Positions 3,976-41,046 of a stretch of DNA of 60,639 bases are shown here, piece by piece. Position 1 is the first letter of the stretch, and every line of letters starts with the position of its first letter. The stretch comes from Microcoleus sp. FACHB-DQ6 (GTDB lineage Bacteria; Cyanobacteriota; Cyanobacteriia; Cyanobacteriales; Microcoleaceae), in assembly GCA_014695175.1 (NCBI GenBank), contig JACJNV010000386.1:1-60639 (forward strand), in the 5' to 3' direction. The notes below the pieces were generated by a model that saw only the letters and a list, made by a program, of their open reading frames with translations, searched no databases and was not told the DNA's origin. A program made the translations under genes and the position numbers.

Positions 3976-6900
3976 TTAACCTTCGCCCACTGCATCGCAC
4001 AGATGCCTGTCCTCCTCCTTCACTTCGGCATTTGTCCGCAGATACTCTCGTACCCAATCGCAACCCGCTGCTACTACCTTATCCAACTCTACAGACTGCT
4101 CTAAATTCCACAAAATTACCGTTTTGTCCTCAGAAGCTGAGGCAAGAGTTTTGCCGTCAGGAGCAAACGCTAATCCCGTAACCCCAGCACTATGTCCAAT
4201 TAGATTTGTTAGCAATTTACCGTCAGGATTCCAGAGTTTAATTATCCCATCAGTACTCCCCGTAGCGATTGTCTGGCTGTCAGGGCTAAACGCTACACTC
4301 CAAATCCCAGAATCATGTCCCTTGAGATTATGCAGTAACTTTCCGTCACGACTCCAAAGTTTAACCATCCTGTCGTCACTCACCGAAGCAATCAATTCGC
4401 CATTAGGACTGAAAGCTACGCCAATAACTGCACTATTATGACCTTGAAGAGTCTTGAATAAGCTACCCTGCCCCTTTGGGGCGGGTGTGGGGTGTGGGGT
4501 TGCAGGTTTCGGGGAAGGCAAACGCCAAAGCTTTACTGTTTTGTCGCCACTGCTCGATACAAGTGTCGAACCATCAGGACTAAAAGCAACCCCCCAAGTC
4601 CCAGCCGTGTGCCCTCTAAAAGTAGCGATTTCGGTGCCGTTGATGCGCCAAAGTTTGATTGTGCGATCGCTACTCGAAGATGCAATCATATTACCGTCCG
4701 GACTAAAAGCGACTTTCCTAATCTGAGCCTGATGCCCTTTGAAACTATGAAGCAATGTACCGTTCGGACTCCAAAGCTTGATTGATTGGTCTATACCAAC
4801 AGTAGCGATCGTTTTACCATCTGGAGCGATTGCAACTGAGCTAAACCGAGGGCTTGGTACTTTTAAGCGCCTATAGCTAATCGGGTCCTTGCGCCAGAGG
4901 ACAGTCTCCTTCAGACTCAATGAAGCCACTAACTGTCCATCGGGGCTAAAAGCTACTCCCCAAACTCCAGTCGTATGTCCCCGCAGAATTGTCAGCAACC
5001 GACTGCGTAATTTCCAGGCTTTGACAGTGCCATCCCAAGATGCAGAGAACAGGGTGTCGCCGTTGGGGCCAAATTTAATATCTTTAATACTACTGTCATG
5101 GGCTTTAATGGCATTCAAAGCAGTACCGTCCTTGCTCCAGAATTTGAGCATCTTGTCGTCAGAAGCAGAGACGAGGATCTGCCCATTCGGGCTGAAAGCT
5201 AATGCGTCAATTCCAGCATCGTGTGCGGTGAAAGTCTTTAACAAACTGCCGTCACGCTGCCACAGTTGCAGCTTGCCGTCTCCATTACCGATTGCCAGGG
5301 TTTTGCCGTCAGGACTAAAGGCAATTGAGAAAACACGAGATTGAAGATCTGAAAGTGTTTTCAGCAATGTGCCATCGGACTGCCAGAATTTTACAGTGCC
5401 GTTGTCAGAACTCGAGACAATCAACTCTCCATCGGGGCTAAAAACGACTTCCGTAACGATCGCGCCATGCCCTGTCAAGGTCTTTAGCAATGTACCATCT
5501 TTTCGCCAGAGTTTTAGCGTACCGTCCCCACTGGCGGCAACGATTAGTTCTCCGTCAGGACTAAAATTTACTTTCTGAGCTGGAGCTTTAAACCCTTTCA
5601 AAGTTTTCAGCACCGGAGCTTTAGTGAGGATGCCGTCACGCCGCCAGAGTTTAACAGTTGTATCTCCGCTTGCTGAAGCAATGAGCTGATTGTTGGGGCT
5701 GATGTCTACTCCTAGAACTGGGCCTTGATGTCCTTTGAGAGTGCCCAGCAACCTGCCATCGCGCTGCCAAATTTTGACGCCCTCTTCGATTGTTGCCGCA
5801 GCAATAATCTCGCCATCAGAACTGACATCTAATCCGTTATTTACGGAAGCGTAAGCCGAAAAGCGGTTAGATTCAACAGCTCCATAAATTGACCGTCGCA
5901 AAGCTAACTCCACCATTGTTTCTGTCTGCGGATCGGTTGACGCCAGGTGTTTGAGTTCTTTTCTGGCCTTAAGCGCTTCAATTAAAGCATCTAACCTTTT
6001 GTCTAAGGCAAAGAGGGCTTCCGAATATCTAGCCCTGCCTTGAATTTTTTCTATTTCCTCATTGCGTTGGCTGACGAGGGCTTTTTGGTACTGGGAAAAA
6101 GCGAAAATTCCGGCTGCGATCGCGTTTACTAGAGCAAAGGAAAGTGCCGCAATCCAATATTTTTGGCGTTGGGCATTTTTTCTCTTGAGTGATAGCCGAG
6201 CTTCTACTTCTTTAAGACGTTCGGCTTCCAAAAATAATTGCAATTCTTGTCGGTCTACTTCTTGGCTAGCCGCTAAAAACTGATAGTCCAAATCGCTTAA
6301 ACTTTTGCCCTGTGCCCAAGCTTGAGCGTCTTTCAAAGCTTGTCCTCGCAACAGTCGGGAAGAATCTGTTTGTTTGGCTGCAATCCAACTTTCAAAAGTT
6401 TGGGAGTAGGGACGTAGTTTCCCTAATTGTTTTTCTACCCATTCGAGGTTAAAAACTTCTGCATAAATGCGGTTTTTAACTTTAAGTAATCCTGCTTTTT
6501 TTTCTACTAATCCAGATAGCACCAGTTCGATTTGTTCGCGGCTGTCGTCGGCACAGATCCCTCCTGCCCCCATTATTAAGGGAGGTTCTGAGTGTCCCCC
6601 CCCTTGATAATGGGGGGTTAGGGGGGGTTCTGAGTGTCCCCCCCCTTGATAAGGGGGGGTTAGGGGGGGTTCTGATTGTAAAATTTGCTGATAAATGCCT
6701 AGCAATCTTCCGGCGCGTTGTTCGTCACGGAGGATGCGATCGGCTATGGTTTTTAAATGCTCCGGTTCGTCCTGCGATTCCCATTTATCGATGATGCGCG
6801 ATCTCACCAAACTATCGACCCAAAATGCCTCTGTTCCCGGAGGAATATTTACTAATCCGCCCACCGTCTCAAGGCTAGCTTTGTACGCCAAATAGCAAAT

Positions 6901-7647
6901 TTTATGCGTGAGGAAGGGCTGTCCACAAGTCCAAGCTAATATTTGTTTGAGAACGGCATCAGGATTACTGACAACCGTCTCTAATCCTTTAACTAATAGT
7001 TGAGCTTCCTGCAGTTCAAAACCCCGCAAATCTATAGCACGACCGATATTAAAAGGAGTTCGCTTTTTGTCAGCAATTAAATCGCTCGGCGTAGCTACTC
7101 CAAAGATTGCAAAACTAATGCGGTTATACTCGGGATTAATCGCTCGCTGATTGTAGCAAAACCTAATCAGGGCAAAAAAATCATCCACAGCGAAATCTAA
7201 ACTGAGAATGCTATCGATTTCATCGATGAATATAAAGATCCGCTCTTGGGGAAACTTAACCAGTAAAATATCTTCTATAAAATGACTCAATCTTTGCAGA
7301 AACGAAACCTCTTCTGAGTCGCGCCACCAGGTTTTTAAATTAACTTGCCCTAAAAGATTGAAGCCGCGCCACAACTCGGCGACCATTCCTTTATACCACT
7401 GTAAAGAGGTAATATTTTCGCTGCCGATGCGGGTCATGTCGATCGTACTGCATTGAAAACCTTCTGCTTGCAGTCGGTGCAGGGTGCGAACGAGAAGGGA
7501 AGATTTGCCCATCTGTCGGGAGTTGAGGACGTAGCAAAACTCGCCGAGTTTTAAGGCTTCATAAAGTTCGATATCTGCTTGTCGTTGGACATAGGTAGGC
7601 GCATCACTGGCGAGACTGCCACCAATTTGGTATGTAACCTTGGTCAT
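3976..7647 (-). CDS. AAA-like ATPase with membrane helix and 14 WD40 repeats
   Basis: This is a 1223-residue paralogue of the gene at 460-3948. Walker [10 protein letters not shown] lies at residues 42-50 and IFIFIDEID near 137-145. A hydrophobic helix ([18 protein letters not shown], about 500-520) precedes the propellers, so the WD40 part may be membrane-anchored. I count 14 WD40 repeats from about residue 596 to 1180, then the [11 protein letters not shown] tail. Residues about 324-360 contain [13 protein letters not shown]-like repeats absent from the paralogue; at the DNA level this is a G/C-run repeat that entered in frame (6567-6675). First gene of the tandem array; about 115 bp separate it from the ATPase gene upstream. 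Role unknown; a signalling or conflict switch is a guess from architecture. Confidence 0.88.
6567..6675. repeat. Interspersed G/C-run repeat inserted in frame in an AAA/WD40 gene
   Basis: Two good copies and one decayed copy of a unit of about 40 bp lie in tandem: a run of C, TTGATAA, then two runs of G separated by TTA, then TTCTGA. On the coding (minus) strand this gives the peptide [12 protein letters not shown]. The paralogous gene joins the flanking codons directly, which shows insertion into this copy rather than loss from the other. Similar peptides appear in many cyanobacterial proteins as translated interspersed repeats. Confidence 0.85.
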
Positions 7648-9663: not shown

Positions 9664-11217
9664 ATGGTTCATACAATGTTTTCAAATTATTTTATTCCTC
9701 ACGGTCATTGCTACTTGTGGAAACCTGGATTAGTAGGGCTACACGTTTTGTCCGATGGTTTGATAGCCGTCGCTTATTTTTTGATTCCGATCACGCTGAT
9801 TTATATTGTCAAAAAGCGAAAAGATGTGCCTTTTGACTGGGTTTTCATGCTGTTTGGCTCTTTTATTATCTGCTGCGGTATTACCCATATTATGGAAATA
9901 TGGACGCTGTGGTATCCTAATTATTGGTTCTCTGGTTTTCTTAAAGGGATTACAGCGCTGATTTCGCTATCTACAGCAGCAGTGCTGGTGGAACTAATCC
10001 CAAAAATCTTGGCTATCCCCAGTCCCGCTCAATTAGCGGTGGCAAATTTAGCTTTACAAAATGAGATTGGCGATCGCAAACAAGCTCAAGAAGCACTCTC
10101 GGAATTAATGCTAGAATTGGAAAAACGGGTGACGGAGAGGACGCTAGCTTTAGAATCAACCAATGAACTTTTGCAACAGGAAAATCGCGATCGCTCTTTG
10201 GCTGAAAATTCATTGCGGCACTCGGAAGCGAAACTACTTGAACGAACTCAGCAGCTAGAGGAAACTCTGCAACAGCTTAAAGAAGCCCAAACTCAACTCG
10301 TGCAAACTGAAAAAATGTCTTCTTTGGGCCAAATGGTAGCTGGGGTTGCTCACGAAATCAATAACCCTGTTAACTTCATTTATGGCAATCTGATTCCGGC
10401 TGAGGAATACATTAAAGATATTTTGGCATTGATTAAGGCTTATCAAGTTTATTACCCCAATCCTGCGCCGGAAATTGCAGACAAGATTCACACTATCGAA
10501 CTCGATTTTATTTTAAAAGACCTGCAAAAACTTTTTGGTTCGATTAAAATAGGAGCAGAACGAATTAAGGACATTGTTAAATCTTTACGCAATTTCTCCC
10601 GTTTAGACGAAGCTGATATGAAAAAAGTAAATATCCATGAAGGGCTCGACAGCACTTTAATGATTTTGCAGCACCGCTTGAAAGAACAACCAAACCGTCC
10701 GCCGATTCAAGTGATTAAAGAGTATGGAGAATTGCCAGAATTAGAATGCTACGCGGGGCAAATTAACCAAGTATTTATGAATATTTGTTCTAATGCTATT
10801 GATGCTTTAGAACAGATTGTACAGCAGGGATATTCCACCAACGGCTATTGGGAAAATAATTTCTGTGACCGCTTACAAAACACCTATTGCCCACTGCTAA
10901 AAATTCGCATTCGCACGCTTTTAGTTGATGGCAAGTGGGTGCAGATTCACATTGCTGATAATGGCCCTGGCATAGATTATGATGCGATCGCTAAAATTTA
11001 CGATCCGTTTTATACGACGAAACCTATCGGTTCTGGTACCGGCCTGGGTTTGGCGATTTCTTATCAGATTATTCAAGCCCATGAAGGTTATTTGCGTTGC
11101 ACTTCCGAGGTTGGCAGAGGTACTGAGTTTATCATTGAAATTCCTTTGCGATGGCAACTTTGCCAATGCGATTGCCACCTGGCCCACAAGCAAGTTGTTA
11201 TGAACAAGCTGGGTTGA
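9664..11217 (+). CDS. Sensor histidine kinase with ethylene-receptor-type membrane domain
   Basis: The N-terminus has three hydrophobic helices (about residues 23-120) matching the ethylene-binding domain of plant ETR1 and Synechocystis SynEtr1. The second helix carries FIICCGITHIMEIW, in which Cys71 and His75 align with the copper ligands Cys65/His69 of ETR1. A coiled coil (about 125-215) leads to the kinase core: H-box GVAHEINNPVNF with His230, N-box NICSNAIDAL, and ADNGPGID and GSGTGLGLAIS of the ATP site. There is no receiver or GAF domain. I chose ATG 9664, preceded by AAGAGG; the frame is open from TTG 9652. The next gene has the same N-terminal domain, so the pair arose by duplication or domain sharing. 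Predicted to bind ethylene through Cu(I) and phosphorylate a response regulator. Confidence 0.9.
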   Translation: MVHTMFSNYFIPHGHCYLWKPGLVGLHVLSDGLIAVAYFLIPITLIYIVKKRKDVPFDWVFMLFGSFIICCGITHIMEIWTLWYPNYWFSGFLKGITALISLSTAAVLVELIPKILAIPSPAQLAVANLALQNEIGDRKQAQEALSELMLELEKRVTERTLALESTNELLQQENRDRSLAENSLRHSEAKLLERTQQLEETLQQLKEAQTQLVQTEKMSSLGQMVAGVAHEINNPVNFIYGNLIPAEEYIKDILALIKAYQVYYPNPAPEIADKIHTIELDFILKDLQKLFGSIKIGAERIKDIVKSLRNFSRLDEADMKKVNIHEGLDSTLMILQHRLKEQPNRPPIQVIKEYGELPELECYAGQINQVFMNICSNAIDALEQIVQQGYSTNGYWENNFCDRLQNTYCPLLKIRIRTLLVDGKWVQIHIADNGPGIDYDAIAKIYDPFYTTKPIGSGTGLGLAISYQIIQAHEGYLRCTSEVGRGTEFIIEIPLRWQLCQCDCHLAHKQVVMNKLG

Positions 11218-11324
11218 GGCGTTAATAACTCATTCCACATCCAGCTACAATTTTGAATCTATTTTAATTTTTTCCCTACCTTAGGCATGGTTCACATCAA
11301 CATTATCTGCAAATAGCAAATATT

Positions 11325-14300
11325 ATGTGGGAAGCACTCAAAAATATCTTTTCCCCAACTCAGTATATGCCTCACGGTCATTGCTATCTTTGGCAAACGC
11401 CTTTAGTGTGGCTGCACGTAACTGGGGACTTTTTAATCGCGATCGCCTACTATTCAATTCCGGCGATGCTGATTTATTTTATCTTCAAGCGGCGCGATGT
11501 CCCTTTTTTAGGAATATTCGCTTTATTCGGTGCATTTATCATTCTCTGCGGCACGGGTCACTTGCTAGAAATTTGGACGTTGTGGCATTCCGCTTATTGG
11601 CTGTCGGGGATTGAAAAAGGAATTACTGCACTGGTTTCCTGCTACACAGCCGCCTCGATGGTAACACTATTGCCACAGTTTTTATCTTTAAAAACCCCAC
11701 AAGAATTAGAGGAAATAAATCGCAAGTTGCAGTGTGAAATCGCCGTGCGTGAAGATGCAGAATTAGCTTTGCGCTGTGCTTATGATGACTTAGAAATTAA
11801 AGTGCAAGAGCGCACCGCAGAGTTGAGAGAAATTAACGGTTATTTAGAAGCAGAAATTAGAGAAAAAGTTGCCGCTGCATCGGCTTTGCGCGAACGAGAA
11901 ATTAGGTTAAGAGAACAACAAACGGGCTTGCTAGAATTAGCAAAAAATTCTAGTATCTACGAGGGAAATATCAACGAGGCGTTGAGAGAGATTACGCAAA
12001 TGGCAACCCGTACTCTAAATGTTGAGCGGGGAAGTATTTGGTTTTATAGGCAAAATAAATCCACAATGTGGTGTGCCGAACTCTACGAACTGACGGCCAA
12101 TCAACACAGCGAGGGTGTAGAACTGAAAGTTGCTGACTATCCTAGCTATTTCCAAGCTTTGAATACAGAACAGGCGATCGCAGTGGTTGATGCCAAAACA
12201 GATCCGCGCACCCTAGAATTTAGCGAATCTTATTTGACGCCTTTAAACATTTCGTCGATGTTAGATGTTCCTATTACCCATCAAGGACAAATTGCGGGGG
12301 TAATTTGTTTAGAACATCAGGGAACGACGAGGAATTGGACGCTCGACGAACAAAACTTCGCTAGCTATGTGGCACAGATTGCAGCTTTAGCAATGGAAGC
12401 TCGCGATCGCAAGCAAGCTGAGTTAAACTTGCGTTCTGTCACCGAACGCTTGCAATATTTGTTGGCGACCACTCCGGCGGTGATTTTTAGCTGCAAATTA
12501 GGGGGAAATTATGACGTAACATTTGTCAGCGATAATATTGTTTCAATGATTGGTTACGAAGCGCGAGAATTTCTTGATGGTTCCCTTGATTGGCATAGCC
12601 TGGTTCACCCAGAAGATAGAGAAATTGTTGCTACTTCATTCGCTCAACTATTGGAAAAAGAAGGGATTTCTTACGAATACCGCGAACGGCACAAAGACGG
12701 TAGTTATCGCTGGATATACGACGAGGTTAAGTTAGTCAAAAATTCTGCTGGCATACCTGTGGAGTGCGTGGGTTATGGAGTAGATATTACTGCTCGCAAA
12801 CAGGCGGAAGCAGCTTTGCAGCAACAAGTCAAAAGGGAGCGGCTAGTGAATGCTATTCAAGAGCGGCTTCGCTCCTCTCTTAACCTAGAAGAAGTAATGA
12901 CAATGGCTGTGGAAGAAGTGCGCCAGTTTTTGTCAACAGACAGGACTGTTATTTACCGCTTTAACCCAGATTGGAGTGGATTTGTCGCCGTTGAGTCGGT
13001 AGCAGCCGATACGATGCCGATTTTGGGAATTGATATTAATGACCAATGTTTTCGAGAACACTACGTCTCTGTTTACCAGGAGGGACACCTGCGCGCGATC
13101 GACAATATTTATACGGCAGGTCTTTCAGAGTGCCACGTTAATTTACTGAGCCAGTTTGAAATTAAAGCTAACCTCGTGGTTCCCATTTTGCAAGGTGAAA
13201 AATTATGGGGGCTACTAATTGCTCATCACTGCCGCAATTACAGGCATTGGGACTCTTCTGAGATAGAATCTCTTAAGCAAATTTCTGTGCAGCTAGCAAT
13301 TGCCCTCCAGCAATCTACCCTTTTTGAACAAGCCAAAACAGAAATTGCCGAACGAAAATTAGCAGAAACAGCATTACAAAAAGCTGTCGTAGCTGCTGAT
13401 ACAGCTAACCGCGCCAAGAGCGAATTCCTTTCTTCTATGAGCCACGAACTGCGGACTCCCCTGAATGCCATTCTCGGATTTAGTCAGGTGATGGTGCGCG
13501 ATCCATCTCTCAACAATCAACACCAACAGCACCTAGAAATTATTAATCGCGCCGGTGAACACTTGCTTGCCCTGATTAATGACATTTTGGAAATGTCTAA
13601 AATTGAAGCCGGCCGAAGTCAGCTTAATGAAAGCAGCTTTAATTTAATGCGCTTGCTAAAAACCTTAGAAGAAATGTTTCGATTAAAAGCTAAATCTAAG
13701 AAATTGCAGCTAAATCTTGAAGTGGGTGACGGCGTACCGGACTTTGTTAGTGGAGATGAAGGTAAATTGCGCCAAATTTTGATTAATCTTGTAGGAAATG
13801 CGATCAAGTTTACAGAGATGGGTAGCGTTACTTTGCGAGTGAAAAAGAAGGTAGAAAAAAGTTTGGGGGCTGAAACCGCAGAGTTTTCGGACACACAAAC
13901 AAAACTTATCGGCGCGGGTTGTGAACATTCCGAAAGCTTAGCGGTTGAAACCGCAGCTATACAAAGAAAAGCCGGATGGTGCAGTGGTTTTAATCAGTCC
14001 GAAAGCTTGGCGGACTGTGATTGTGCAGACGCGCATGACCTTCACCCGGAATTGTTACGCCTTCAGTTTGAAATTGAAGATACGGGTCTTGGCATTGCCC
14101 CAGAAGAAATGAATAAGTTATTTGAACCTTTTGAGCAAACAAAAACAGGTCAAAAATCTCAACAGGGGACTGGATTAGGTTTACCAATTAGCCGCAAATT
14201 TGTACAAATGATGGGAGGAGATATTACTGTCAGCAGTACACCAGAGTTGGGAAGTAAGTTTGCATTTGATATTCAAATCAACCTTGCCACTCCAAGCGAG

Positions 14301-15023
14301 ATTAAAATCCTTAAACCGCAGAAAAAAGTCATGGGTTTAGCACCGAATCAACCAGAATACCGGATTTTGGTTGTTGACGATCGCGCCGATAACTGCCTAG
14401 TCATAGAGAGATTATTGTCACCACTAGGCATCCTCGTGCGAGAAGCTAGAGATGGTCAAGAAGCTATTGCGGTATGGGAGGATTGGCAACCGCACCTGAT
14501 CTGGATGGATATGCAGATGCCTGTCATGGATGGCTATGAAGCCACCAGAAAAATTAAAGCTCATCCTCTCGGAAAACAAACTGTAATAGTTGCTCTTACT
14601 GCTAGCGTTTTTGAAGAGGAACGACAAACTATTTTAGGAGCAGGCTGCGATGATTTCATGCGTAAACCCTTCGAGGCAAAGATATTATTTGCGAAGATGG
14701 AAAAATTTTTAGGAGTGCGCTACATTTACGAGGAATCTGTTGATGCACCACTAGAAAAGGAAAGCGAAATTAGCGGAGTGGGTAGCAATCAATCTGTCGA
14801 GTCACAACTCGGTCAAATGCCTCATGAGTGGGTGGAGAAGATATCTCATGCTGCTCATGAATGTTGCGACGATAAAATTCTTAAGTTGATTGAGGAATTG
14901 CCTAGAGAATTTGCTGGAGCCGCACAAGTTTTAACTACTTTAGTGGAGGATTTTCTGTTTGACGATATTATAGAGCTAGCGCAATCAGCACTTACGATGA
15001 TTAGAGTACCAGTTTCCAACTAA
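11325..15023 (+). CDS. Hybrid histidine kinase: ethylene-binding domain, GAF, PAS, DXCF cyanobacteriochrome GAF, receiver
   Basis: A 1232-residue sensor. Residues 1-120 form an ethylene-receptor-like three-helix domain with Cys75 and His79 (LCGTGH). A coiled coil, a GAF (about 205-355) and a PAS/PAC (about 375-495) follow. The second GAF (about 515-665) is of cyanobacteriochrome type: DQCF at 573-576 is the DXCF motif and Cys603-His604 is the canonical bilin-attachment pair, followed by KANLVVPIL and LWGLLIAHHC. DXCF proteins of this kind often switch between blue/violet and green states. The kinase has His707 (SHELRTP) and GTGLGLPIS; a receiver with Asp1062 ends the conserved part. About 60 residues (845-905) between N-box and G1-box look inserted. 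The domain set recalls SynEtr1/UirS, so it may sense both ethylene and light. Confidence 0.9.
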   Translation: MWEALKNIFSPTQYMPHGHCYLWQTPLVWLHVTGDFLIAIAYYSIPAMLIYFIFKRRDVPFLGIFALFGAFIILCGTGHLLEIWTLWHSAYWLSGIEKGITALVSCYTAASMVTLLPQFLSLKTPQELEEINRKLQCEIAVREDAELALRCAYDDLEIKVQERTAELREINGYLEAEIREKVAAASALREREIRLREQQTGLLELAKNSSIYEGNINEALREITQMATRTLNVERGSIWFYRQNKSTMWCAELYELTANQHSEGVELKVADYPSYFQALNTEQAIAVVDAKTDPRTLEFSESYLTPLNISSMLDVPITHQGQIAGVICLEHQGTTRNWTLDEQNFASYVAQIAALAMEARDRKQAELNLRSVTERLQYLLATTPAVIFSCKLGGNYDVTFVSDNIVSMIGYEAREFLDGSLDWHSLVHPEDREIVATSFAQLLEKEGISYEYRERHKDGSYRWIYDEVKLVKNSAGIPVECVGYGVDITARKQAEAALQQQVKRERLVNAIQERLRSSLNLEEVMTMAVEEVRQFLSTDRTVIYRFNPDWSGFVAVESVAADTMPILGIDINDQCFREHYVSVYQEGHLRAIDNIYTAGLSECHVNLLSQFEIKANLVVPILQGEKLWGLLIAHHCRNYRHWDSSEIESLKQISVQLAIALQQSTLFEQAKTEIAERKLAETALQKAVVAADTANRAKSEFLSSMSHELRTPLNAILGFSQVMVRDPSLNNQHQQHLEIINRAGEHLLALINDILEMSKIEAGRSQLNESSFNLMRLLKTLEEMFRLKAKSKKLQLNLEVGDGVPDFVSGDEGKLRQILINLVGNAIKFTEMGSVTLRVKKKVEKSLGAETAEFSDTQTKLIGAGCEHSESLAVETAAIQRKAGWCSGFNQSESLADCDCADAHDLHPELLRLQFEIEDTGLGIAPEEMNKLFEPFEQTKTGQKSQQGTGLGLPISRKFVQMMGGDITVSSTPELGSKFAFDIQINLATPSEIKILKPQKKVMGLAPNQPEYRILVVDDRADNCLVIERLLSPLGILVREARDGQEAIAVWEDWQPHLIWMDMQMPVMDGYEATRKIKAHPLGKQTVIVALTASVFEEERQTILGAGCDDFMRKPFEAKILFAKMEKFLGVRYIYEESVDAPLEKESEISGVGSNQSVESQLGQMPHEWVEKISHAAHECCDDKILKLIEELPREFAGAAQVLTTLVEDFLFDDIIELAQSALTMIRVPVSN

Positions 15024-15186
15024 TCTCTACTTAGGAGCATCTCCTGTTTAAAAAAGACTTAACCTTAGCCCCCCCCAACCACTCCCTGCCCTCTCTCTGT
15101 AGGAGAGAAAATCAAAATTTATACTGTTTCGTTTGGATGGAGAGCGAATTATTAAGTGTTAATATCTTTGAGTTTAAAAAACAACC

Positions 15187-16416
15187 GTGAACCCTCGCAT
15201 GGACAGCAATCAATATCCTACCATTCAAGCCAACATTTTAGTAGTTGATGATAAGCCCGATAACGTGCGGCTTTTATCTACAATCTTGACCGAACAAGGG
15301 TATCAGGTTCGTAAAGCGCTGAACGGTCAAAGGGCGATCGCTACAGTGCTGGAGTTTCCGCCAACTCTAATTTTGCTGGACGTGATGATGCCAGACATGA
15401 ATGGATATGAGGTATGTGCAAAGTTGAAAGCTTCACCAAAAACCAGTTCCATTCCCGTAATTTTCTTAAGCGCCTTAGATGACGTTTTAGATAAGGTGAA
15501 AGCTTTTGAGGTGGGAGCAGTTGACTATATTACTAAACCTTTTCAAGGTAAAGAAGTATTGGCACGAGTGGCAAATCAGTTAACAATTCAAAATCAACAA
15601 CAGTTACTTCAAGAGCAAACGAAGCAATTCAAACAACTTGTCGAACGTTTGCAAAACGAAATTAAAGAGCGGCAGGGGGTGGAGCTAGCTTTACGGCTTG
15701 CTCAAACAAAGTCGGATAATTTATTGCTGAATATTTTACCAGCAGCGATTGTTGAAAATTTGAAAAAGGGCGAGGGTTCTCCTGCCCAGAGGTTTGATTC
15801 AGCAACAGTTCTTTTTGCCGATATTGTCGATTTTACGTCTATTGCTGCTAGAATGTTACCTCTAGAATTGGTAAATGTACTGAACCAGATTTTTTCCAGG
15901 TTTGACCAACTAACTGAAAAACACGGTTTGGAAAAAATTAAAACAATTGGAGATGCTTATATGGTAGCGGGGGGGTTGCCTGTGCCGAGGGCAGATCATG
16001 TAGAAGCGATCGCGAATATGGCTTTGGATATGCAGGAAGCGATCGCAGATTTTCACACTGACAGAGGCGAACCATTTCAAATTCGGATTGGCATTCATAC
16101 AGGGCCCGTAGTTGCTGGCGTAATTGGCACTAAAAAATTTATCTATGACTTGTGGGGAGATACTGTTAATGTTGCTTCTCGGATGGAATGTCAAGGATTA
16201 CCGGGATATATTCAAGTTACTACGGCTATTTACGAACTGTTAAAAGAGCAGTATTTATTTGAGGAAAGAGGTGCGATAACGATTAAAGGAAAAGGAGAGA
16301 TGAGCGTCTATTGGCTAAAAGGTAAAAAAGATAATTCAGCGGTAGAAACCGATGCTTGTCAAACGAATTCCACTCCTCTCGAACTAATAGATTCCCCAAA
16401 TATTCCACTTCTTTAA
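15187..16416 (+). CDS. Response regulator fused to class III adenylate cyclase
   Basis: This 409-residue protein has a receiver (about 15-130, phosphoacceptor Asp65 in LILLDVMMPD), a coiled-coil linker with the helical NILP element (about 135-195) and a class III cyclase domain. Metal aspartates are Asp212 (LFADIVDF) and Asp256 (KTIGDAYM); Lys252 and Asp321 (YDLWGD) fit adenine selectivity and Arg332 (ASRM) is the transition-state arginine, so a functional adenylate cyclase is predicted. GTG 15187 is used here; ATG 15199 is an alternative. It follows two ethylene-receptor-like kinases by about 160 bp on the same strand and is the obvious candidate to receive phosphate from them, turning gas or light input into cAMP. 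That link is inferred from position only. Confidence 0.9.
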   Translation: MNPRMDSNQYPTIQANILVVDDKPDNVRLLSTILTEQGYQVRKALNGQRAIATVLEFPPTLILLDVMMPDMNGYEVCAKLKASPKTSSIPVIFLSALDDVLDKVKAFEVGAVDYITKPFQGKEVLARVANQLTIQNQQQLLQEQTKQFKQLVERLQNEIKERQGVELALRLAQTKSDNLLLNILPAAIVENLKKGEGSPAQRFDSATVLFADIVDFTSIAARMLPLELVNVLNQIFSRFDQLTEKHGLEKIKTIGDAYMVAGGLPVPRADHVEAIANMALDMQEAIADFHTDRGEPFQIRIGIHTGPVVAGVIGTKKFIYDLWGDTVNVASRMECQGLPGYIQVTTAIYELLKEQYLFEERGAITIKGKGEMSVYWLKGKKDNSAVETDACQTNSTPLELIDSPNIPLL

Positions 16417-16465: not shown

Positions 16466-17746
16466 TTAAAAAATGAAAATAATTTGCAGTTTCCAATTTG
16501 TATTTTCCCGGACGATTTCAATGCGATCGATAAATTCTCGAAAGTAAAACCTGCGTTCTGATTCTGATAAATCGAGCCAAAATTGGGGAAAGGAAACGGT
16601 TTGGGCAGTTTCTCGCAAATTTACTGGGGGTAGTTGCGCTAATTTGCTTTGCAGTTCGGCAATTTCGGTGCGGATTTTGTAGGCTCTAAACTCTGCCGTT
16701 TCCGTGTCTAAAATGCCGCTGTCAATCAGGGCCGGAAGTTGCTCTAGGATTTCTTGTTTTGATGCGATCGCCCTGACAATTCCTGCTTTAATTCCATTCA
16801 TATTCGGCATTTGCAACCCAGCAACAGCATCGGGTAAATCCCGACAAATACCGGCGATGGTTAATTGCAATACTTCATCGTAGGAAATGCCGCTACATTT
16901 AGGCTGTTTTGGACAGTTAATCGGTCGCAAATAAAGGTATTCTTTTTCTTTGCGGTAGGAGGTGACTTTGGCAACTGTCATGGGCGATTTGCATTCTGCA
17001 CAAATTGCTAAACCTGCGAGGGAACGTGGGGCGCTAGCGCTGCGAGGAGAAAGGCAGCGGTTGCGGCGCAGTAACCTGTCTATTTGGGCGGCTTCATCTC
17101 TGGAAATAATCGGGACGTGGGTGTTAGAAATTACTTGGCCGTTTTGATATTCCAAATCCCCTCGGTAGGCGGGATTTGTCAGCCAGCGGCGGCCGGTACT
17201 TACAGAAATTTTTTTGTTGTATTTCTTGGCTAAATACCGCACGGAACCTCGCAAAGAACCGTAAATTAAAAAGTGTTCAAAAAAGTCTTTGACGGTGGGG
17301 GCGGTGGTTTTATCGATCGTATAACAATCTTTGCCGCGCCGGTAGCCGTAGGGAGCCTTACCCGGTGGAATGCGGGATTTGATGCGGTTGCGCGCGTGTC
17401 CTTTGCGAATACTCCGGCTGTGTTGGCTGCGCTGGATTTCTGCGAGGATTTGCAGCAAGTTTTTGCGGTTTCGCGGTTCTGTTTCTGCTTGTACGATGAT
17501 TTCGACGCCGAGGTTTTCGAGTTGCCAGAGGTGCGAACACACTTGCTGCAATGTGTCGCCTAGTTCTTCAAACCGCTGAATTAATAAGTATTTGACTTGT
17601 TCTGTTTGGCAGTCTTTGAGGAGTTGCTGAAGTTGTTGCCGCCCTCCTAAGTCTTGATAGGTGCGATCGACTTCTTGACCCCAAATTTCCGGTGCGGGTG
17701 CTGCTTCCAGTAGCGGTTCGGTGTAAGAATAAGCGATGATTTTCAT
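16466..17746 (-). CDS. Serine recombinase-like protein (XisF-type) with degenerate catalytic end
   Basis: The 426 residues follow the layout of large serine recombinases: an N-terminal resolvase-like fold (1-110), a Recombinase domain (PPGKAPYGYRRG onward, about 125-225) and a zinc ribbon (CAECKSPM...CPKQPKC, about 250-290), then a coiled coil. The N-terminus reads IIAYSYTEP where active enzymes have YxRVS, so the catalytic serine falls on Glu10 and the arginine on Tyr8; the DRLxR motif is also altered (QRFEELGD). The protein may bind DNA without cutting it. It begins 3 bp after the stop of the VOC gene, so the two form an operon. No attachment sites or element ends were seen. Similar proteins are widespread in cyanobacteria, related to XisF of the fdxN element. 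Confidence 0.8.
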   Translation of the reverse strand: MKIIAYSYTEPLLEAAPAPEIWGQEVDRTYQDLGGRQQLQQLLKDCQTEQVKYLLIQRFEELGDTLQQVCSHLWQLENLGVEIIVQAETEPRNRKNLLQILAEIQRSQHSRSIRKGHARNRIKSRIPPGKAPYGYRRGKDCYTIDKTTAPTVKDFFEHFLIYGSLRGSVRYLAKKYNKKISVSTGRRWLTNPAYRGDLEYQNGQVISNTHVPIISRDEAAQIDRLLRRNRCLSPRSASAPRSLAGLAICAECKSPMTVAKVTSYRKEKEYLYLRPINCPKQPKCSGISYDEVLQLTIAGICRDLPDAVAGLQMPNMNGIKAGIVRAIASKQEILEQLPALIDSGILDTETAEFRAYKIRTEIAELQSKLAQLPPVNLRETAQTVSFPQFWLDLSESERRFYFREFIDRIEIVRENTNWKLQIIFIF

Positions 17747-17749
17747 CTG

Positions 17750-18109
17750 TTACTCGCTGAGTTCGATGATGTTGCCGTCGGGATCTTGGGTAAATAATGC
17801 CGATCGACCTGACGCGCTCATTTGGAACGGGCAATTGTGAGCGATTAACTGCTGTTTGGCTGCCTCTAAGTTAGCAACAGAAAATGCTAGATGTCGGTTG
17901 CGTCCCCATTTGGCATGGTCTACGGCATCTGGGATAATTGTTGCACCTAAAATTAAGTGGAGCTGGAAGTCGCCGATTTGATACCAGATTCCGGGAAATT
18001 TTAAGTCTCGATCGATTTTTTGCAGTCTTAGTACGGTGCTGTAAAAGTGTTGGGATTTTTCCAGGTTGGAGATGAGTAGGGCGCTGTGCAGGGATTGAGT
18101 AATTTGCAT
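17750..18109 (-). CDS. VOC-family (glyoxalase/bleomycin resistance-like) protein
   Basis: A 119-residue protein with the two beta-alpha-beta-beta-beta units of the vicinal oxygen chelate fold: SALLISNLEKSQHFYSTVL and HLAFSVANLEAAKQQL begin the two halves, and TQDPDGNIIELSE is the usual end. Candidate metal ligands are His8, His51 (LHLIL), a histidine in RHLAF and the C-terminal Glu (IIELSE). Members range from lyases to dioxygenases and binding proteins, so the substrate cannot be named. It is the first gene of a two-gene operon with the recombinase-like protein 3 bp downstream. The partnership is odd and its meaning is unclear. Confidence 0.85.
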   Translation of the reverse strand: MQITQSLHSALLISNLEKSQHFYSTVLRLQKIDRDLKFPGIWYQIGDFQLHLILGATIIPDAVDHAKWGRNRHLAFSVANLEAAKQQLIAHNCPFQMSASGRSALFTQDPDGNIIELSE

Positions 18110-18713: not shown

Positions 18714-18773
18714 GGCAGCATTTGAAAAGTTAATCAACCTACTGTAAACTGCCCGCTGGGAGTGTTTTTAACA

Positions 18774-20900
18774 ATGGTTTCAGAAAAAAGTGCGATCGGC
18801 TCCAGATCGGGCAAATTCCGTCTCCGCAATGTCTTGGTAGTTCCCTTTGTTCTCCAAATTTTGGCTGCTGTTGGCTGCGTTGGCTATCTCTCTTACAGAA
18901 ACGGAGAGCAGATAGTCAACGATATTGTTAATCAGTTGCGGCAGGAAGTGAGTGCGAGAGTTTACGAACGTGTCCAAACCTATCTGGAAGATCCGCCCCT
19001 CGTGAATCAGATCAATTACGATGCTTTACGTCTGGGGGTGTTGAACTTTGACGATTTAGAGCAAACTCGACCCTATTTTTGGAAACAAGTTCTGCAATTT
19101 AATTCGATCGGTTACGCGGGAATTGCCAACGAAAAAGGTCAGTACCTGCGTGTGGGTTGGGTAAATCGGCTGGTTGGACTTGAACAACCTCAGCTTGCCC
19201 AGCAACTAATTCCCGGGAGTGGCGACTTGATATTTTACAACCTTGACGCTGATGGAAACCCGACAAAAATTGACAAAACCACGCCCAATTACGACGTTCG
19301 CACGCGCCCTTTTTACAGAGTTGTTGTTGAGAAGAAACAGGCAGCTTGGAGTGAAGTTTATATTAATTTTGGTTACGGTACGCTGCAAATTAATGCGAGT
19401 CTACCCTATTACGATGCCAAAGGCCAACTAATTGGCCTGCTGACTTGCCAGATGGGACTCGATCAAATTCGCCACTTCCTGCAAACCTTAAGGGTGGGTA
19501 ATTCCGGTCAAGTATTTATCATTGAACCCCAGGGTGAATTAATAGCCACCTCGGTTAAAGAACAGCCTCTTTCGGTGGGAACAGGCAAAGATACAAAGCG
19601 GATCAAAGCACAGGAAAGCAGCCACCCGCTGATGCGTCAAAGTGTGTTTGAGCTGCTCGATCGCTTCAAGCGTTTGGAAGACATCCATCAAACTGTTCAA
19701 CTTGACTTTAAGCTGAACGGTGAGCGGCAATTTATCCAAGTTTCTCCGCTAACTGACAAGTACGGTCTCAATTGGCTGATTGTAGTAGTAGTTCCTGAAG
19801 CGGACTTTATGGCGCAAATTTATGCTAACAGTCGCCACACCATTTTGCTGTGTATTGTGGCTCTAGTTGTCTCTGTTGGAGTGGGTATTTTCACCGCTAG
19901 CTGGATTACTCGCCCCCTGAATCAAATTGCTCAAGCTTCACAATATCTAGCAGGTGGTGCTCTCAACCAGAACGTTGATTCCAGTCGGATTTGGGAAATT
20001 GAAACCTTAACAAATTCCTTTAACAGCATGGCGAGACAACAGCAAGAATCCTTTGAAACGCTAGAAGATAAAGTCAAAGAACGTACCTCTGAACTCGCTA
20101 CAGCCACTAAACAAATTGCTGCTCTCAACCAGCGCCTGAAAGCGGAAAACCTCCGCATGAGTTCCGAGCTCGATATTCTCAAACAAATGCAGCAGTTGAT
20201 TCTGCCAAAACCTGCTGAACTTGCAGCCATTGAAGATTTAGATATTGCCGGATTTATGGAGCCAGCCTCGGAAGTAGGCGGTGATTACTACGACGTACTT
20301 TGTACGAACGGGGTTGTCACGATTTGCATTGGTGATGTCACCGGACACGGATTAGAAAGCGGCATTTTGATGGTGATGACTCAAGCTGCTGTCCGCACTC
20401 TTCAGGAAATGCAAGAATCCAACCCGGTGCGTTTTTTAGATACCCTCAACCGCACTATTTATAAAAATGTCCAGCGCATGAACTCCGACAAAAATATGAC
20501 ACTAGCTTTGCTCAACTATGCGGATCGCACAATTAGTATCAGCGGTCAACATGAGGAAACTCTTGTGGTTAGGAAAGGCGGTCAAATCCAGCGGATAGAC
20601 ACCATAAATTTAGGATTTCCGCTCGGGTTAGATGAGGATATTTCCGATTGGATTAGCCATGTTTTAGTCTACTTAGAACCTGGGGACGGGGTGGTGCTTT
20701 ATACTGACGGCATCCCCGAAGCTAGAAATATGCACAAAAAATTCTACGGTATCGAAAGACTCTGTGAAGTGGTTTCTCAAAACTGGCATTTGAGCGCCGA
20801 ACAAATTAAGGAAGCCGCCATCGATGATTGGCGACAATTTATTGGAAAACAAAAAGTATTTGATGACATTACCTTGCTTGTGGTCAAGAAAAGAGATTGA
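18774..20900 (+). CDS. Membrane-bound PP2C (SpoIIE/RsbU-type) phosphatase with Cache sensor and HAMP
   Basis: The 708 residues contain a membrane helix near the N-terminus (about 20-40), a large extracytoplasmic Cache-type sensor (about 45-355), a second helix (TILLCIVALVVSVGVGIF), a HAMP linker (RPLNQIAQASQYLAGG) and a coiled coil. The C-terminal part (about 485-708) is a SpoIIE-type PP2C domain with metal-binding acidic motifs EVGGDYYDV, GDVTGHG and YTDGIPEARN. Such enzymes dephosphorylate STAS anti-sigma antagonists. ATG 18774 is preferred; GTG 18762 is in frame upstream. From the coiled coil to the end it is nearly identical to the C-terminus of the giant kinase gene at 22860-28310. Predicted to report a periplasmic ligand to the switch proteins further downstream. 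Confidence 0.9.
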   Translation: MVSEKSAIGSRSGKFRLRNVLVVPFVLQILAAVGCVGYLSYRNGEQIVNDIVNQLRQEVSARVYERVQTYLEDPPLVNQINYDALRLGVLNFDDLEQTRPYFWKQVLQFNSIGYAGIANEKGQYLRVGWVNRLVGLEQPQLAQQLIPGSGDLIFYNLDADGNPTKIDKTTPNYDVRTRPFYRVVVEKKQAAWSEVYINFGYGTLQINASLPYYDAKGQLIGLLTCQMGLDQIRHFLQTLRVGNSGQVFIIEPQGELIATSVKEQPLSVGTGKDTKRIKAQESSHPLMRQSVFELLDRFKRLEDIHQTVQLDFKLNGERQFIQVSPLTDKYGLNWLIVVVVPEADFMAQIYANSRHTILLCIVALVVSVGVGIFTASWITRPLNQIAQASQYLAGGALNQNVDSSRIWEIETLTNSFNSMARQQQESFETLEDKVKERTSELATATKQIAALNQRLKAENLRMSSELDILKQMQQLILPKPAELAAIEDLDIAGFMEPASEVGGDYYDVLCTNGVVTICIGDVTGHGLESGILMVMTQAAVRTLQEMQESNPVRFLDTLNRTIYKNVQRMNSDKNMTLALLNYADRTISISGQHEETLVVRKGGQIQRIDTINLGFPLGLDEDISDWISHVLVYLEPGDGVVLYTDGIPEARNMHKKFYGIERLCEVVSQNWHLSAEQIKEAAIDDWRQFIGKQKVFDDITLLVVKKRD

Positions 20901-22730: not shown

Positions 22731-22859
22731 ACTAAAAGCTTACTACGATTTAGCAACCTGAGCGGTGGTAAGTACGTTCTGAATCGCTGAAACCATTGCC
22801 CCCAATTGCATCGCTCCATCGATTTTTGCCTTCTTCCTTTAAGATATACTATAGTAACT

Positions 22860-25800
22860 ATGACCCTGATATCAATTCCCGGCTACCGGGCGATCGAACA
22901 ACTCTACTCAGGCTCTAGAACCTTGGTTTACCGAGGCTTTTCTGAATCAGACAATCAACCAGTCGTCATCAAACTGCTCAAATCAGATTATCCCACTTTC
23001 AGCGAACTGGTGCAGTTTCGCAATCAGTACACCATTGCCAAAAATATTGAAAATTCCGGTATTGTCAAACACTTAAGTCTGGAAGTATACCGTAACGGTT
23101 TTGCCTTAGTGATGGAGGATTTTGGCGGAATTTCTCTAGCAGAATACATCACCAATGAGACTTGGAACCTCAAGGACAAAATTACCAATACCCTAGAAAA
23201 TTTTTTACAAATTGCCCTGAAAATTTGCTCTTGTTTAGAATCAATATATAACAACAAAGTTATTCACAAAGATATCAAACCCCAGAACATTATAATTAAC
23301 CCTACAACTCAAGAAGTTAAAATAATAGACTTTAGTATTTCCTCGCTTTTGCCTCGAGAAAATCCAGAAATTAAAAATCCCAACATCTTAGAAGGGACAT
23401 TAGCTTATATGTCTCCAGAACAAACTGGAAGAATGAATCGTGGGATTGACTACCGCACCGATTTTTACTCGCTTGGAGTAACTTTTTACGAACTGTTGAC
23501 AGGACAATTGCCATTCCAATCTAACGAGCCGATGGAATTGGTTCACTCTCACATTGCTCGCCAGCCAATTCACCCGATCGCCCTCAATCCTGCCATCCCC
23601 CAAGTATTGAATGACATAGTGCTCAAACTTATGGCGAAAACAGCCGAAGCACGCTATCAAACAGTTGGTGGCATCAAACACGATTTAGAAAAATGCTTAA
23701 AAGAATACTCAGATCGTGGCACTATTCAACTGTTTGAACTAGGAAGCAGAGACATTCCCGAACGCTTTGTGATTCCCGAAAAACTTTACGGCAGAGAAAC
23801 CGAAGTTTTGGCTCTATTAGCAGCCTTCCACCGCGTCGCCTGTCCCCAAGAAAATTCCGCAGCCGCGGATTTGGAGGTTTCCCCTAGTAGCAGCCGAGAG
23901 CCTCAGAAACTCCCCCCTAGAGCTACTACCGAAATCATGTTGGTAGCAGGCTTTTCCGGGATTGGCAAAACCGCTGTGGTGAACGAAGTTCACAAGCCAA
24001 TCGTCCAGCAGCGGGGATACTTTATCAAGGGGAAATTCGATCAATTCAGGCGCGATATTCCATTCTCAGCATGGGTACAAGCTTTGCAAAGTTTCCTGCA
24101 GCAATTACTGACAGAAAGCGTTACTCAAGTTCAGCAGTGGCAAGCCCAAATATTGTCCGCTTTAGGCGATAAGGCTCAGGTAATTATTGATGTTATCCCA
24201 GAATTAGAACTGCTGATTGGCAAGCAACCTGCTGTCCAGGAATTAGAAGCCAATCCTGCACAAAATTGTTTCAATCTGTTATTTCAAAAGTTCATTCGTG
24301 TCTTTGCTACCAAAAATCACCCCTTAGTGATCTTCTTAGATGATTTGCAATGGGCAGATTCAGCATCTCTGAAACTAATGCAATTGTTGCTCGGCGAATC
24401 AGAAGGTCAACATTTGCTGCTAATTGGCGCTTATCGAGATAATGAAGTTTCCAGCGTTCATCCATTAATGCTGACTTTATCAGAGATTCGCAATCTACCA
24501 AATCGCAGTATCGATCGCCCAGCCCCTATAATTAATCAAATTACTCTCGCGCCACTTTCAAAAATTGACTTAAATCGTCTAGTTGCTGATGCTTTAAGTT
24601 GTCCGCCATATCGCTCTATTTCTTTAACAGAATTGATTTTTCAAAAAACTAAAGGCAATCCTTTTTTTAGCAATCAATTTCTCAGAAAGCTGCATGAAGA
24701 TAAGTTAATCTATTTCGATTTTACCCCGTTGGATGGGGGAGAAAGGGGTGGTTGGCAGTGCGATATTACTAAAATTAGAGAATTGGCAGTCAGCGATGAT
24801 GTCGTCGAATTTATGGCTAATCAATTGCAAAAATTGCCGCTAAATACTCAAAACCTTTTAAAAATAGCTGCTTGTATGGGCAGTCAATTTGATTTAGAAA
24901 CCTTAGCTGTTGTTTGTGAAAAATCTCAAATAGACACTGCGGCTGATTTATGGAAAGCATTGCAAGAAGGTCTAATTTTACCGCAAAGTGAAGTTTACCA
25001 ATTTTTTGCAGATGATGGGGAGTCTGCACCATTAGCTGTTGCCGATTGTCAATTGCCCAGTTACAAATTTTTGCACGATCGCGTTCAACAAGCTTCTTAT
25101 TCTTTGATTCCCGAGGAGGCAAAACAGTCAACTCACCTAAAAATTGGCAGATTGTTGTTGAGTAATACCCCAGATGATGAAAAAGAAGAGCGGATATTTG
25201 ATATTGTCAACCACTTGAATATTGGAGTGGAATTAATTGTCGATCGCACCGAAAGAAATCAACTAGCTTCCTTGAACTTAATGGCGGGATGTAAAGCTAA
25301 AAATTCTACAGCTTATGCTGCTGCTGTGGATTATTTAAGTATCGGCAGAAAACTGCTAGCAGATGATAGCTGGACAAATTTATACGACTTGACGATCGAT
25401 CTTTATGTAGAAGCGGTTGAAGCCGAATATTTGAATACCAATTTCGATTTGTCGCACCAACTGGCGGAAATAGTTCTATGTCGAGCGCACAATCTCCTCG
25501 ATCAATTCAGAGTTTACGAAGCGCAAATTCAGTCTTATATTGCTCAAAATCAGATGAAATCGGCAGTAGATACTGGATTGCAAGTTTTGGGAATGCTGGG
25601 TGTTTCTTTGGAAACAGAACTTCCCGCTACAGTAGAGATATCTGCCTTAGCTAATTTGCCTCAAATTAATAATCCTTATAAAATTGCTGCTTTGAGGATT
25701 TTATGTGCGATCGCTTCTGCCGCTTATCTAGCTAGTCCAGAACTTTACCCAGCCGTTGTGTTTACAATGGCACATATTTGTAGCAAATATGGGAACTCTG

Positions 25801-40965: not shown

Positions 40966-41046
40966 AAAGGGGGCATAGGTAGGGGGCATCAGTGATCAGT
41001 TAAGATGTAGTAGAGCTTGTCACTGAGGGTTCAAACAAAAATTATT

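What the first reader, a model, noticed from the sequence alone, without database searches (positions are those of the whole stretch)
9664..16416. Ethylene- and light-sensor kinases next to a receiver-adenylate cyclase
Two adjacent histidine kinases carry the ethylene-receptor membrane domain with both copper ligands (C71/H75 and C75/H79). The second adds a cyanobacteriochrome GAF with both DXCF and canonical cysteines, and a receiver. The next gene is a receiver fused to a class III cyclase with all catalytic residues. Synechocystis SynEtr1/UirS is followed by transcription-factor-type regulators, so a cyclase output would be a different wiring: ethylene and blue/green light controlling cAMP. 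The direct link is inferred from order and strand.
Basis: partly seen in the sequence, partly recalled or inferred. Interest (0 to 1): 0.85.

Follow-up and report, generated by a model that had tools for sequence, protein, structure and literature searches.

The report
Ethylene and light kinases controlling cAMP
A cyanobacterium carries a conserved three-gene cluster in which two kinases built like plant ethylene receptors, one of them also a light sensor, sit beside a receiver-linked enzyme that should make cAMP, suggesting that a plant-hormone gas and light jointly control a second messenger.

Summary
At 9664-16416 lie an ethylene-receptor-type kinase (HK1), a second one with a DXCF cyanobacteriochrome GAF and C-terminal receiver (HK2), and a receiver fused to a class III cyclase with the adenylate-cyclase residues. 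The order is not chance: in 11 of 11 other genomes with a close cyclase relative (74% identity or more; 243 genomes searched), it lies directly after the HK2-type kinase while outer genes vary. Five more named genomes show the cluster, one cut by its contig end. A second cyclase lineage (4 genomes) also follows ethylene kinases, with the light sensor in the cyclase; a tree test rejects one clade for both. The cyclase's receiver resembles those following ethylene hybrid kinases elsewhere, there joined to GGDEF or kinase parts. Best reading: a modular ethylene/light hybrid kinase acting on a swappable receiver protein, here with cAMP output. HK2 has no conserved tail histidine, so transfer is probably direct. 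Ethylene binding, photochemistry, phosphotransfer and cAMP are inferred, not shown. The wiring is patchy: 1 of 80 ethylene-domain genes outside the family has it. A new variant of the SynEtr1 kind.

The parts
9664..11217 (+). HK1: ethylene-binding-type membrane domain, coiled region, HisKA (H230), HATPase; no receiver
9730..10017 (+). HK1 ETR1_N domain; copper ligands C71 (9874-9876) and H75 (9886-9888)
   Evidence: 79-98% identity in 7 of the 8 related loci with HK1, the eighth (L043) being cut before this domain
11325..15023 (+). HK2: ethylene-binding-type domain, GAF, PAS, cyanobacteriochrome GAF, HisKA (H707), HATPase, C-terminal receiver (D1062), helical tail
11403..11690 (+). HK2 ETR1_N domain; C75 (11547-11549) and H79 (11559-11561)
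12882..13307 (+). HK2 cyanobacteriochrome GAF; DXCF Cys C575 (13047-13049), canonical Cys C603 (13131-13133)
   Evidence: (both Cys in 12 of 12 aligned loci, window counted)
13413..13613 (+). HK2 HisKA dimerisation and phosphoacceptor domain
14364..14696 (+). HK2 C-terminal receiver, D1062
14727..15020 (+). HK2 helical tail after the receiver; no conserved His, no significant HPt match
15187..16416 (+). Receiver-adenylate cyclase (alternative ATG start 15199)
15235..15570 (+). Receiver domain of the cyclase protein, D65
15784..16323 (+). Class III cyclase catalytic domain; D212, K252, D256, D321, N328, R332

Best explanation
This is a dual-input two-component module with a cAMP output. HK2 (helped by HK1) sits in the membrane; its copper-type membrane domain is expected to bind ethylene and its DXCF cyanobacteriochrome GAF to absorb in the UV/blue-to-green range through a bilin held by two cysteines. 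Both inputs set the autophosphorylation of the HisKA histidine (H707). The phosphate goes either to HK2's own receiver (D1062), a likely brake or sink, or directly to D65 of the neighbouring receiver-cyclase, whose state sets the class III cyclase homodimer and so cAMP. HK1, a simple kinase with the same membrane domain, is most likely an accessory ethylene input, by heterodimer or by phosphorylating or dephosphorylating the same receiver. Shown here: gene content, intact motifs, conserved linkage, a second cyclase lineage in the same setting, and the matching receiver type. Inferred: ethylene and light as inputs, direct phosphotransfer, the sign of the effect, and cAMP as the physiological output.
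For: Observation and motifs. Linkage: one search covered 243 genomes of the order (own included); 11 others hold a cyclase of 74% identity or more, and in 11 of 11 it lies directly downstream, same strand, of the CBCR hybrid kinase, 24-163 bp apart by first in-frame start. Flanks differ: the serine recombinase and glyoxalase genes lie beside the cluster in 6 of the 11 and were not seen in 5, one of them (L041) at a contig end. Each of the 11 loci keeps an ethylene-type domain in HK1 or HK2 (L047 in HK1 only). Five further named genomes show the cluster, one cut inside the cyclase. Second lineage: in 4 genomes an ethylene hybrid kinase is followed, with 0-bp spacing or a 4-bp overlap, by receiver-CBCR-cyclase proteins of 671-1061 aa (DXCF and canonical Cys read in two of them); both cyclase types as one clade is rejected, AU p 0.0019. 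Within the genome, 6 of 6 receiver-bearing unfused cyclases examined have a kinase within two same-strand genes against 4 of 19 without receiver, Fisher p 0.0012. The cyclase receiver resembles N-terminal receivers of genes that follow hybrid kinases elsewhere; such a receiver follows 29 of 64 ethylene hybrid kinases against 10 of 69 simple ones.
Against: No biochemical evidence of any kind. In the wider sample 1 of 80 ethylene-domain genes, at 79 loci outside the family, had a receiver-cyclase neighbour, so this wiring is a minority one. Even in the family it is patchy: of the 19 family genomes that one search lists (own included), 10 hold the cyclase ortholog, and two of the ten same-genus genomes (G179, G209) do not. 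Vertical inheritance explains much of the conservation. Two genomes lack HK1 beside HK2 and one (G165) has MHYT domains in place of HK2's ethylene domain. Oscillatoria princeps RMCB-10 keeps HK1 but has a receiver-GGDEF-EAL output. HK2 has its own receiver and no conserved tail His. One relative's HK2 (L038, G033) lacks one of the seven ethylene residues. Two promoter-like matches lie in the gap between HK1 and HK2 (16 in the region against 14.6 in shuffles), so one transcript is not shown.
Confidence: 0.6

Rival explanations
1. Light-to-cAMP only: the membrane domain does not report ethylene but anchors the kinase or senses copper, redox or another small ligand; the working input is the cyanobacteriochrome.
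For: Both light cysteines are kept in 12 of 12 cluster loci, whereas the HK2 ethylene domain is replaced by MHYT in one and lacks one of seven ethylene residues in another. HK1 is absent beside HK2 in two genomes.
Against: All seven ethylene residues are intact in HK1 of 8 of 8 loci with that region and in HK2 of 10 of 11 with the domain, window counted in both; each of the 11 related loci keeps at least one ethylene-type domain; the SynEtr1 domain and Geitlerinema cells bind ethylene (PMC6682694, passages read).
Confidence: 0.25
2. The neighbours are not partners: the receiver-cyclase is served by other kinases and the order persists by inheritance or co-regulation only.
For: Gaps of 107 and 163 bp in the window would allow separate promoters; the cluster was seen only in one order and only part of its family.
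Against: 11 of 11 linkage while flanks vary; gaps of 24-52 bp between HK2 and cyclase in 8 of the 11 relatives; no terminator-like site in the two gaps; receiver-cyclases sit near kinases 6 of 6; the same receiver family follows ethylene hybrid kinases with other outputs.
Confidence: 0.15
3. HK1, not HK2, is the kinase for the cyclase, and HK2 is a light-gated phosphatase or sink acting through its own receiver.
For: HK1 is a simple kinase with intact motifs, and HK2's own receiver competes for its phosphate.
Against: HK1 is missing beside HK2 in G001 and G228 while HK2 and cyclase remain; leaving out L058-L068, the receiver family follows 21 of 56 hybrid and 0 of 58 simple ethylene kinases (arithmetic).
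Confidence: 0.2

Closest known systems
SynEtr1/UirS-UirR-LsiR of Synechocystis PCC 6803 (slr1212-slr1213-slr1214)
   Same: Ethylene-binding membrane domain and two-cysteine bilin GAF in one sensor kinase, with response regulators encoded near it (PMC3546692, PMC6508509, passages read).
   Different: Output there is an AraC-type regulator, a PatA-type regulator and the RNA csiR1; here it is a receiver-adenylate cyclase. Here there is a second ethylene-type kinase and a C-terminal receiver on HK2 (its absence in SynEtr1 is recalled).
GeiEtr1/GeiEtr2 of Geitlerinema PCC 7105
   Same: GeiEtr2 has ethylene domain, PAS, GAF and C-terminal receiver, like HK2 (a kinase part is assumed), and a diguanylate cyclase gene grouped with it (PMC6682694, passages and Discussion part 1 read).
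   Different: The neighbour should make c-di-GMP, not cAMP; no link between the two was tested in what I read.
AphC-CyaC of Anabaena PCC 7120
   Same: A phytochrome-like histidine kinase proposed to phosphorylate and activate an adenylate cyclase and so raise cAMP (PMC4284465, passages read).
   Different: Far-red light and no ethylene domain; that CyaC has its own kinase and receivers and is not encoded beside AphC is recalled.
Synechocystis Cya1-SYCRP1 blue/UV-A light motility pathway
   Same: Blue or UV-A light raises cAMP and motility (PMC3546692, PMC4284465, passages read).
   Different: The photoreceptor above Cya1 is not identified in what I read; here sensor and cyclase are linked genes.
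Cyanobacteriochrome-based photoswitchable cyclases (cPAC)
   Same: Bilin GAF controlling a class III cyclase; the second lineage found here (L088, L137, L139, L140) has this fusion.
   Different: Known to me from recall and a search listing only; whether an ethylene kinase partner was noted there I did not see.

Membership tests
Ethylene-receptor (ETR1-type) sensor kinase | ETR1_N membrane domain | tested here: met
   PF25487 at 4e-41 (HK1) and 2.7e-38 (HK2)
Ethylene-receptor (ETR1-type) sensor kinase | Copper ligands and the other residues needed for ethylene binding (seven; list recalled) | tested here: met
   7 of 7 in HK1 and in HK2
Ethylene-receptor (ETR1-type) sensor kinase | Saturable, copper-dependent ethylene binding | not testable with these tools
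   needs expressed protein and labelled ethylene
SynEtr1/UirS system | Ethylene domain plus two-cysteine cyanobacteriochrome GAF plus kinase in one protein | tested here: met
   HK2
SynEtr1/UirS system | AraC-type and PatA-type regulators encoded next to the kinase | tested here: not met
   next gene is receiver-cyclase, then an opposite-strand recombinase
DXCF cyanobacteriochrome | Canonical Cys and DXCF Cys in a bilin-type GAF | tested here: met
   C575 and C603, both in 12 of 12 aligned loci; the GAF matches solved cyanobacteriochromes
DXCF cyanobacteriochrome | Covalent bilin and photoconversion | not testable with these tools
   needs spectroscopy of purified GAF
Class III adenylate cyclase | Two metal Asp, adenine Lys/Asp, transition-state Asn/Arg (roles recalled) | tested here: met
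   D212, D256, K252, D321, N328, R332; present in 12 of 12 aligned
Class III adenylate cyclase | Makes cAMP | not testable with these tools
   needs enzyme assay
Phosphorelay hybrid kinase with HPt | Conserved phosphotransfer His after the receiver | tested here: not met
   no invariant His in the tail of 9 sequences; helical tail model without significant PDB match, HPt 3myf at E 3.5
AphC-CyaC type phospho-regulated cyclase | Receiver with phosphoacceptor Asp on the cyclase | tested here: met
   D65, receiver E 4e-29
AphC-CyaC type phospho-regulated cyclase | Kinase-dependent change of cyclase activity | not testable with these tools
   needs phosphotransfer and cAMP assays

The most novel reading that the evidence does not exclude
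Cyanobacteria hold a modular ethylene-and-light signalling kit: hybrid kinases with an ethylene domain act on a dedicated next-gene receiver whose output part has been exchanged among adenylate cyclase, diguanylate cyclase (with or without EAL) and histidine kinase, so that ethylene reaches cAMP by at least two independent recruitments. In that reading ethylene is a first messenger for cyclic-nucleotide second messengers in bacteria, with the light sensor free to sit on either the kinase or the cyclase.
Probability: 0.5. Interest if true: 0.75.

Novelty: new variant of a known kind. Interest (0 to 1): 0.62.

Why it matters
Plant ethylene receptors are believed to come from the cyanobacterial ancestor of the chloroplast (PMC11819568, passage), yet the downstream pathway of a bacterial ethylene receptor is described, in what I read, chiefly for Synechocystis, where it is transcriptional. 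A receptor kinase beside a receiver-cyclase gives an enzyme output that can be measured directly. It also offers a concrete candidate for which photoreceptors set cAMP in filamentous cyanobacteria. The swap of the output part under one receiver type (cAMP, c-di-GMP, kinase) lets the same ethylene input be compared across species.

Tried and rejected
Chance adjacency: considered because the genome has 34 cyclase and 7 ethylene-domain matches; rejected by 11 of 11 linkage. General enrichment of cyclases beside ethylene kinases across the phylum: not found, 1 of 80, so I claim a recurring wiring within one branch, not a common one. HPt in the HK2 tail: not supported. Fold of the receiver-cyclase: mean pLDDT 51.9 with nine sequences, discarded. 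Plasmid collection: 75 records, all of proteobacteria by name and all under 60% identity, not followed. Promoter and terminator scan: 16 promoter-like sites against 14.6 in shuffles, two of them between HK1 and HK2; no terminator-like site in the two gaps; weak evidence either way. Literature: ten searches (open-access library only; lists cut at 20 of 113 and 20 of 52) gave no listing or passage that I saw tying an ethylene receptor to a receiver-adenylate cyclase. Six papers were opened, for passages or one section part only (PMC6682694, PMC6508509, PMC11819568, PMC4284465, PMC3546692, PMC7076178); the other listed papers were not opened.

Limits of the surveys. Neighbour classes came from small profiles built here (ethylene domain, CBCR, kinase, receiver, cyclase, GGDEF), with no DNA-binding profile, so 'no tracked partner' can include transcription factors. 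Searches fetched 80 loci: 79 hits outside the family, taken roughly from the top of the (capped) list, and one inside it (L227); other listed hits were left out. One search counted the 80 ethylene-domain genes on the 79 outside loci. One search used both samples, L227 included, distinct by the first 150 residues. Fisher tests ignore relatedness, and includes the cluster itself; the figures without it are given. One search examined 27 cyclase genes (2 fused ones set aside), not all 34 matches, and three lie near the end of the stretch held. In the tree test rows outside the ethylene groups were scored as 'not beside an ethylene kinase'; this was seen with wide flanks for 11 of them (L049-L057, L146, L147), while the others were held with only 1.5 kb on each side and not checked. 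One search printed at most seven matches per protein.

Full report
What is there. The three genes are real and intact. HK1 (9664-11217) is an ethylene-type membrane domain followed by a simple histidine kinase. HK2 (11325-15023) has the same kind of membrane domain, a first GAF, a PAS, a cyanobacteriochrome GAF with C575 in a DQCF motif and C603 before a His, then HisKA, HATPase and a receiver. The third protein (15187-16416) is a receiver followed by a class III cyclase with the residue set of an adenylate cyclase. The seven residues that ethylene binding needs in Arabidopsis ETR1 (recalled list) are all present in both kinases.

Is it more than chance. The genome (6.7 Mb, 402 contigs) has 34 cyclase matches and 7 ethylene-domain matches, so one adjacency alone means little. 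One search covered 243 genomes of the order, own included, with the receiver-cyclase; 11 others have a match of 74% identity or more (G033, G092, G166, G109, G234, G219, G001, G056, G228 in the same family; G165, G136 in other families). Stretches around all 11 were fetched. In 11 of 11 the cyclase is directly downstream, on the same strand, of the CBCR hybrid kinase, with gaps of 163, 24, 24, 36, 52, 32, 33, 35, 35, 157 and 143 bp (L038 to L048) by first in-frame start. HK1 precedes HK2 in 8 of 11 (incomplete at a contig end in G219); in G092 the contig ends there, and in G001 and G228 it is absent beside HK2. The outer neighbours differ: the recombinase and glyoxalase genes next to the window's cluster are beside it in 6 of the 11 relatives; in the other five they were not seen, one of which (L041) ends at the contig end. 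The ortholog is patchy within the family: 10 of the 19 family genomes that one search lists, own included, have it. A draw of 386 genomes of the phylum gave 9 with a match at E 1e-130 or better, own included, all of the order (it overlaps the draw).

Named carriers. A tenth HK1-type locus (L067) ends on a short contig after an unclassified 462-aa frame, and an eleventh (L068) has another output (below). Two further loci of the 80 (L088, L137) have a receiver-cyclase of another type next to the ethylene kinase; so 10 of 80 loci show a whole receiver-cyclase directly downstream.

What is kept. Among 12 aligned loci (window and 11) both light cysteines are present in 12, the six cyclase residues and the receiver Asp in 12, and the HK2 copper ligands in 11; in G165 the HK2 membrane part is MHYT instead, while its HK1 keeps the ethylene domain. 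HK1 copper ligands are present in 8 of 8 HK1 sequences that include the region, window counted. A relative of HK2's first GAF was listed in 5 of the 11 relatives (at most seven matches printed per protein); five others have HK2 proteins of 1005-1038 aa against 1171-1232 aa, in line with loss of that GAF, while the light GAF is kept in all. One HK2 (L038) lacks one of the seven ethylene residues.

A second lineage. In Symplocastrum torsivum CPER-KK1 (L137), an uncultured Coleofasciculus (L088, the same contig as L138), G196 (L139) and G065 (L140), an ethylene-domain hybrid kinase is followed at 0-bp spacing or with a 4-bp overlap by a receiver-CBCR-cyclase protein of 1061, 1038, 1020 and 671 aa (Pfam for L137). 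In the two whose sequences I read (L088, L137) that CBCR has DSCF or DPCF and the canonical CH. In G008 (L153) an ethylene kinase, a small receiver and a receiver-GAF-cyclase follow one another. In a tree of 43 cyclase domains the window type (16 rows) and the second type (4 rows) are each one clade; holding both together is rejected (AU p 0.0019; with L153 p 0.0030). The fewest changes of the ethylene-neighbour label are three, which could also be one gain and losses; of the other cyclases in the tree, 11 were seen with wide flanks and none of these has an ethylene-domain neighbour, while the rest were not checked.

Does the receiver belong to the kinase. In the window's genome 6 of 6 unfused receiver-cyclases examined have a kinase within two same-strand genes, against 4 of 19 cyclases without a receiver (Fisher p 0.0012). 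The window cyclase's receiver was compared with 209 receiver domains from the loci in hand, identical ones merged. Besides its orthologs and other receiver-cyclases, the closest are N-terminal receivers of receiver-GGDEF and receiver-kinase proteins, 50-66% identical, many of which follow hybrid kinases; the first receiver from inside or the end of a hybrid kinase stands at rank 64 with 43%. In one search, 133 ethylene-domain kinases, distinct by their first 150 residues, were scored: a receiver of this family follows 29 of 64 hybrid and 10 of 69 simple kinases. The 10 simple ones are all HK1-type genes standing before a hybrid kinase (L058-L066, L068). Leaving out L058-L068 gives 21 of 56 against 0 of 58 (arithmetic). 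Outputs among the hybrid hits are 10 kinases, 9 cyclases, 7 GGDEF and 3 receiver-only, the last including contig ends (L062, L083). So the receiver tracks the hybrid kinase and the output part changes. Oscillatoria princeps RMCB-10 (L068) shows a swap within this kind of cluster: HK1 and a CBCR hybrid kinase are followed by a receiver-GGDEF-EAL protein and a lone receiver.

How it probably works. Ethylene (membrane domain) and light (DXCF GAF) tune HK2; phosphate is passed from H707 to the receiver-cyclase, in competition with HK2's own receiver. The tail after that receiver is predicted as helices (mean pLDDT 77) with no invariant His in nine sequences and no significant structural match, so an HPt step inside HK2 is unlikely and direct transfer is the simplest route. 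HK1 is best seen as a second ethylene input. The genome has 13 cNMP-binding-domain matches that could read cAMP. Which way ethylene and light push the system is unknown. [quoted passage not shown]

Comparison with what is known. SynEtr1/UirS shares the kinase anatomy but has transcription-type regulators (PMC3546692, PMC6508509, passages). GeiEtr2 shares HK2's sensor anatomy and has a diguanylate cyclase gene grouped with it (PMC6682694, passages and Discussion part 1). AphC is proposed to phosphorylate CyaC in Anabaena (PMC4284465, passages). The ingredients are therefore known; the combination with a cAMP output, its conservation and the swap series I did not find in print in the searches. 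In the sample of 80 ethylene-domain genes outside the family, 6 are fused to GGDEF and 12 more have a GGDEF protein in the same-strand run, 10 of them with a receiver; 1 has a receiver-cyclase. So c-di-GMP is the commoner cyclic-nucleotide setting and cAMP the rarer one.

Verdict. It is a new variant of a known kind: a SynEtr1-like receptor kinase wired to adenylate cyclase. Function is untested.

Noticed in passing
window 50834-54355 (-): Single protein with receiver, GAFs, histidine kinase, receiver and a divergent class III cyclase domain fused in one chain.
   Followed up: partly
window 41017-42996 (+) and 28467-29702 (+): A CHASE2-cyclase and a second divergent cyclase with a weak TPR match; with the two others the 60-kb window holds four cyclase matches.
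   Followed up: partly
window 18762-20900 and 22806-28310 (+): A Cache-HAMP-SpoIIE phosphatase and a large kinase-AAA-GAF-SpoIIE protein share a very similar C-terminal phosphatase stretch (by eye; domains).
   Followed up: no
window 3976-7647 (-): AAA_35/WD40 protein carries an in-frame repeated stretch rich in Pro-Pro-Leu-Thr-Pro and Gln-Gly-Gly that looks like a translated DNA repeat (by eye).
   Followed up: no
window 16466-18109 (-): Serine recombinase with zinc ribbon and a glyoxalase-fold gene lie against the cluster; the same pair sits beside the cluster in 6 of 11 relatives.
   Followed up: partly
L047 4281-9116 (G165): HK2 relative in which two MHYT repeats stand in place of the ethylene domain, a swap for another membrane sensor also proposed to hold copper (recalled).
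   Followed up: partly
L149, L157, L172, L181, L207, L220: Ethylene-binding domain in the same protein as a GGDEF domain, with no kinase found by the profiles used.
   Followed up: partly
L145 (G000 contig 261): Own-genome ethylene-type domain without the copper Cys and His, so probably not an ethylene receptor.
   Followed up: no
window 57349-60591 (-): Large protein with nine RTX-type calcium-binding repeat stretches and a bacterial Ig domain match.
   Followed up: no
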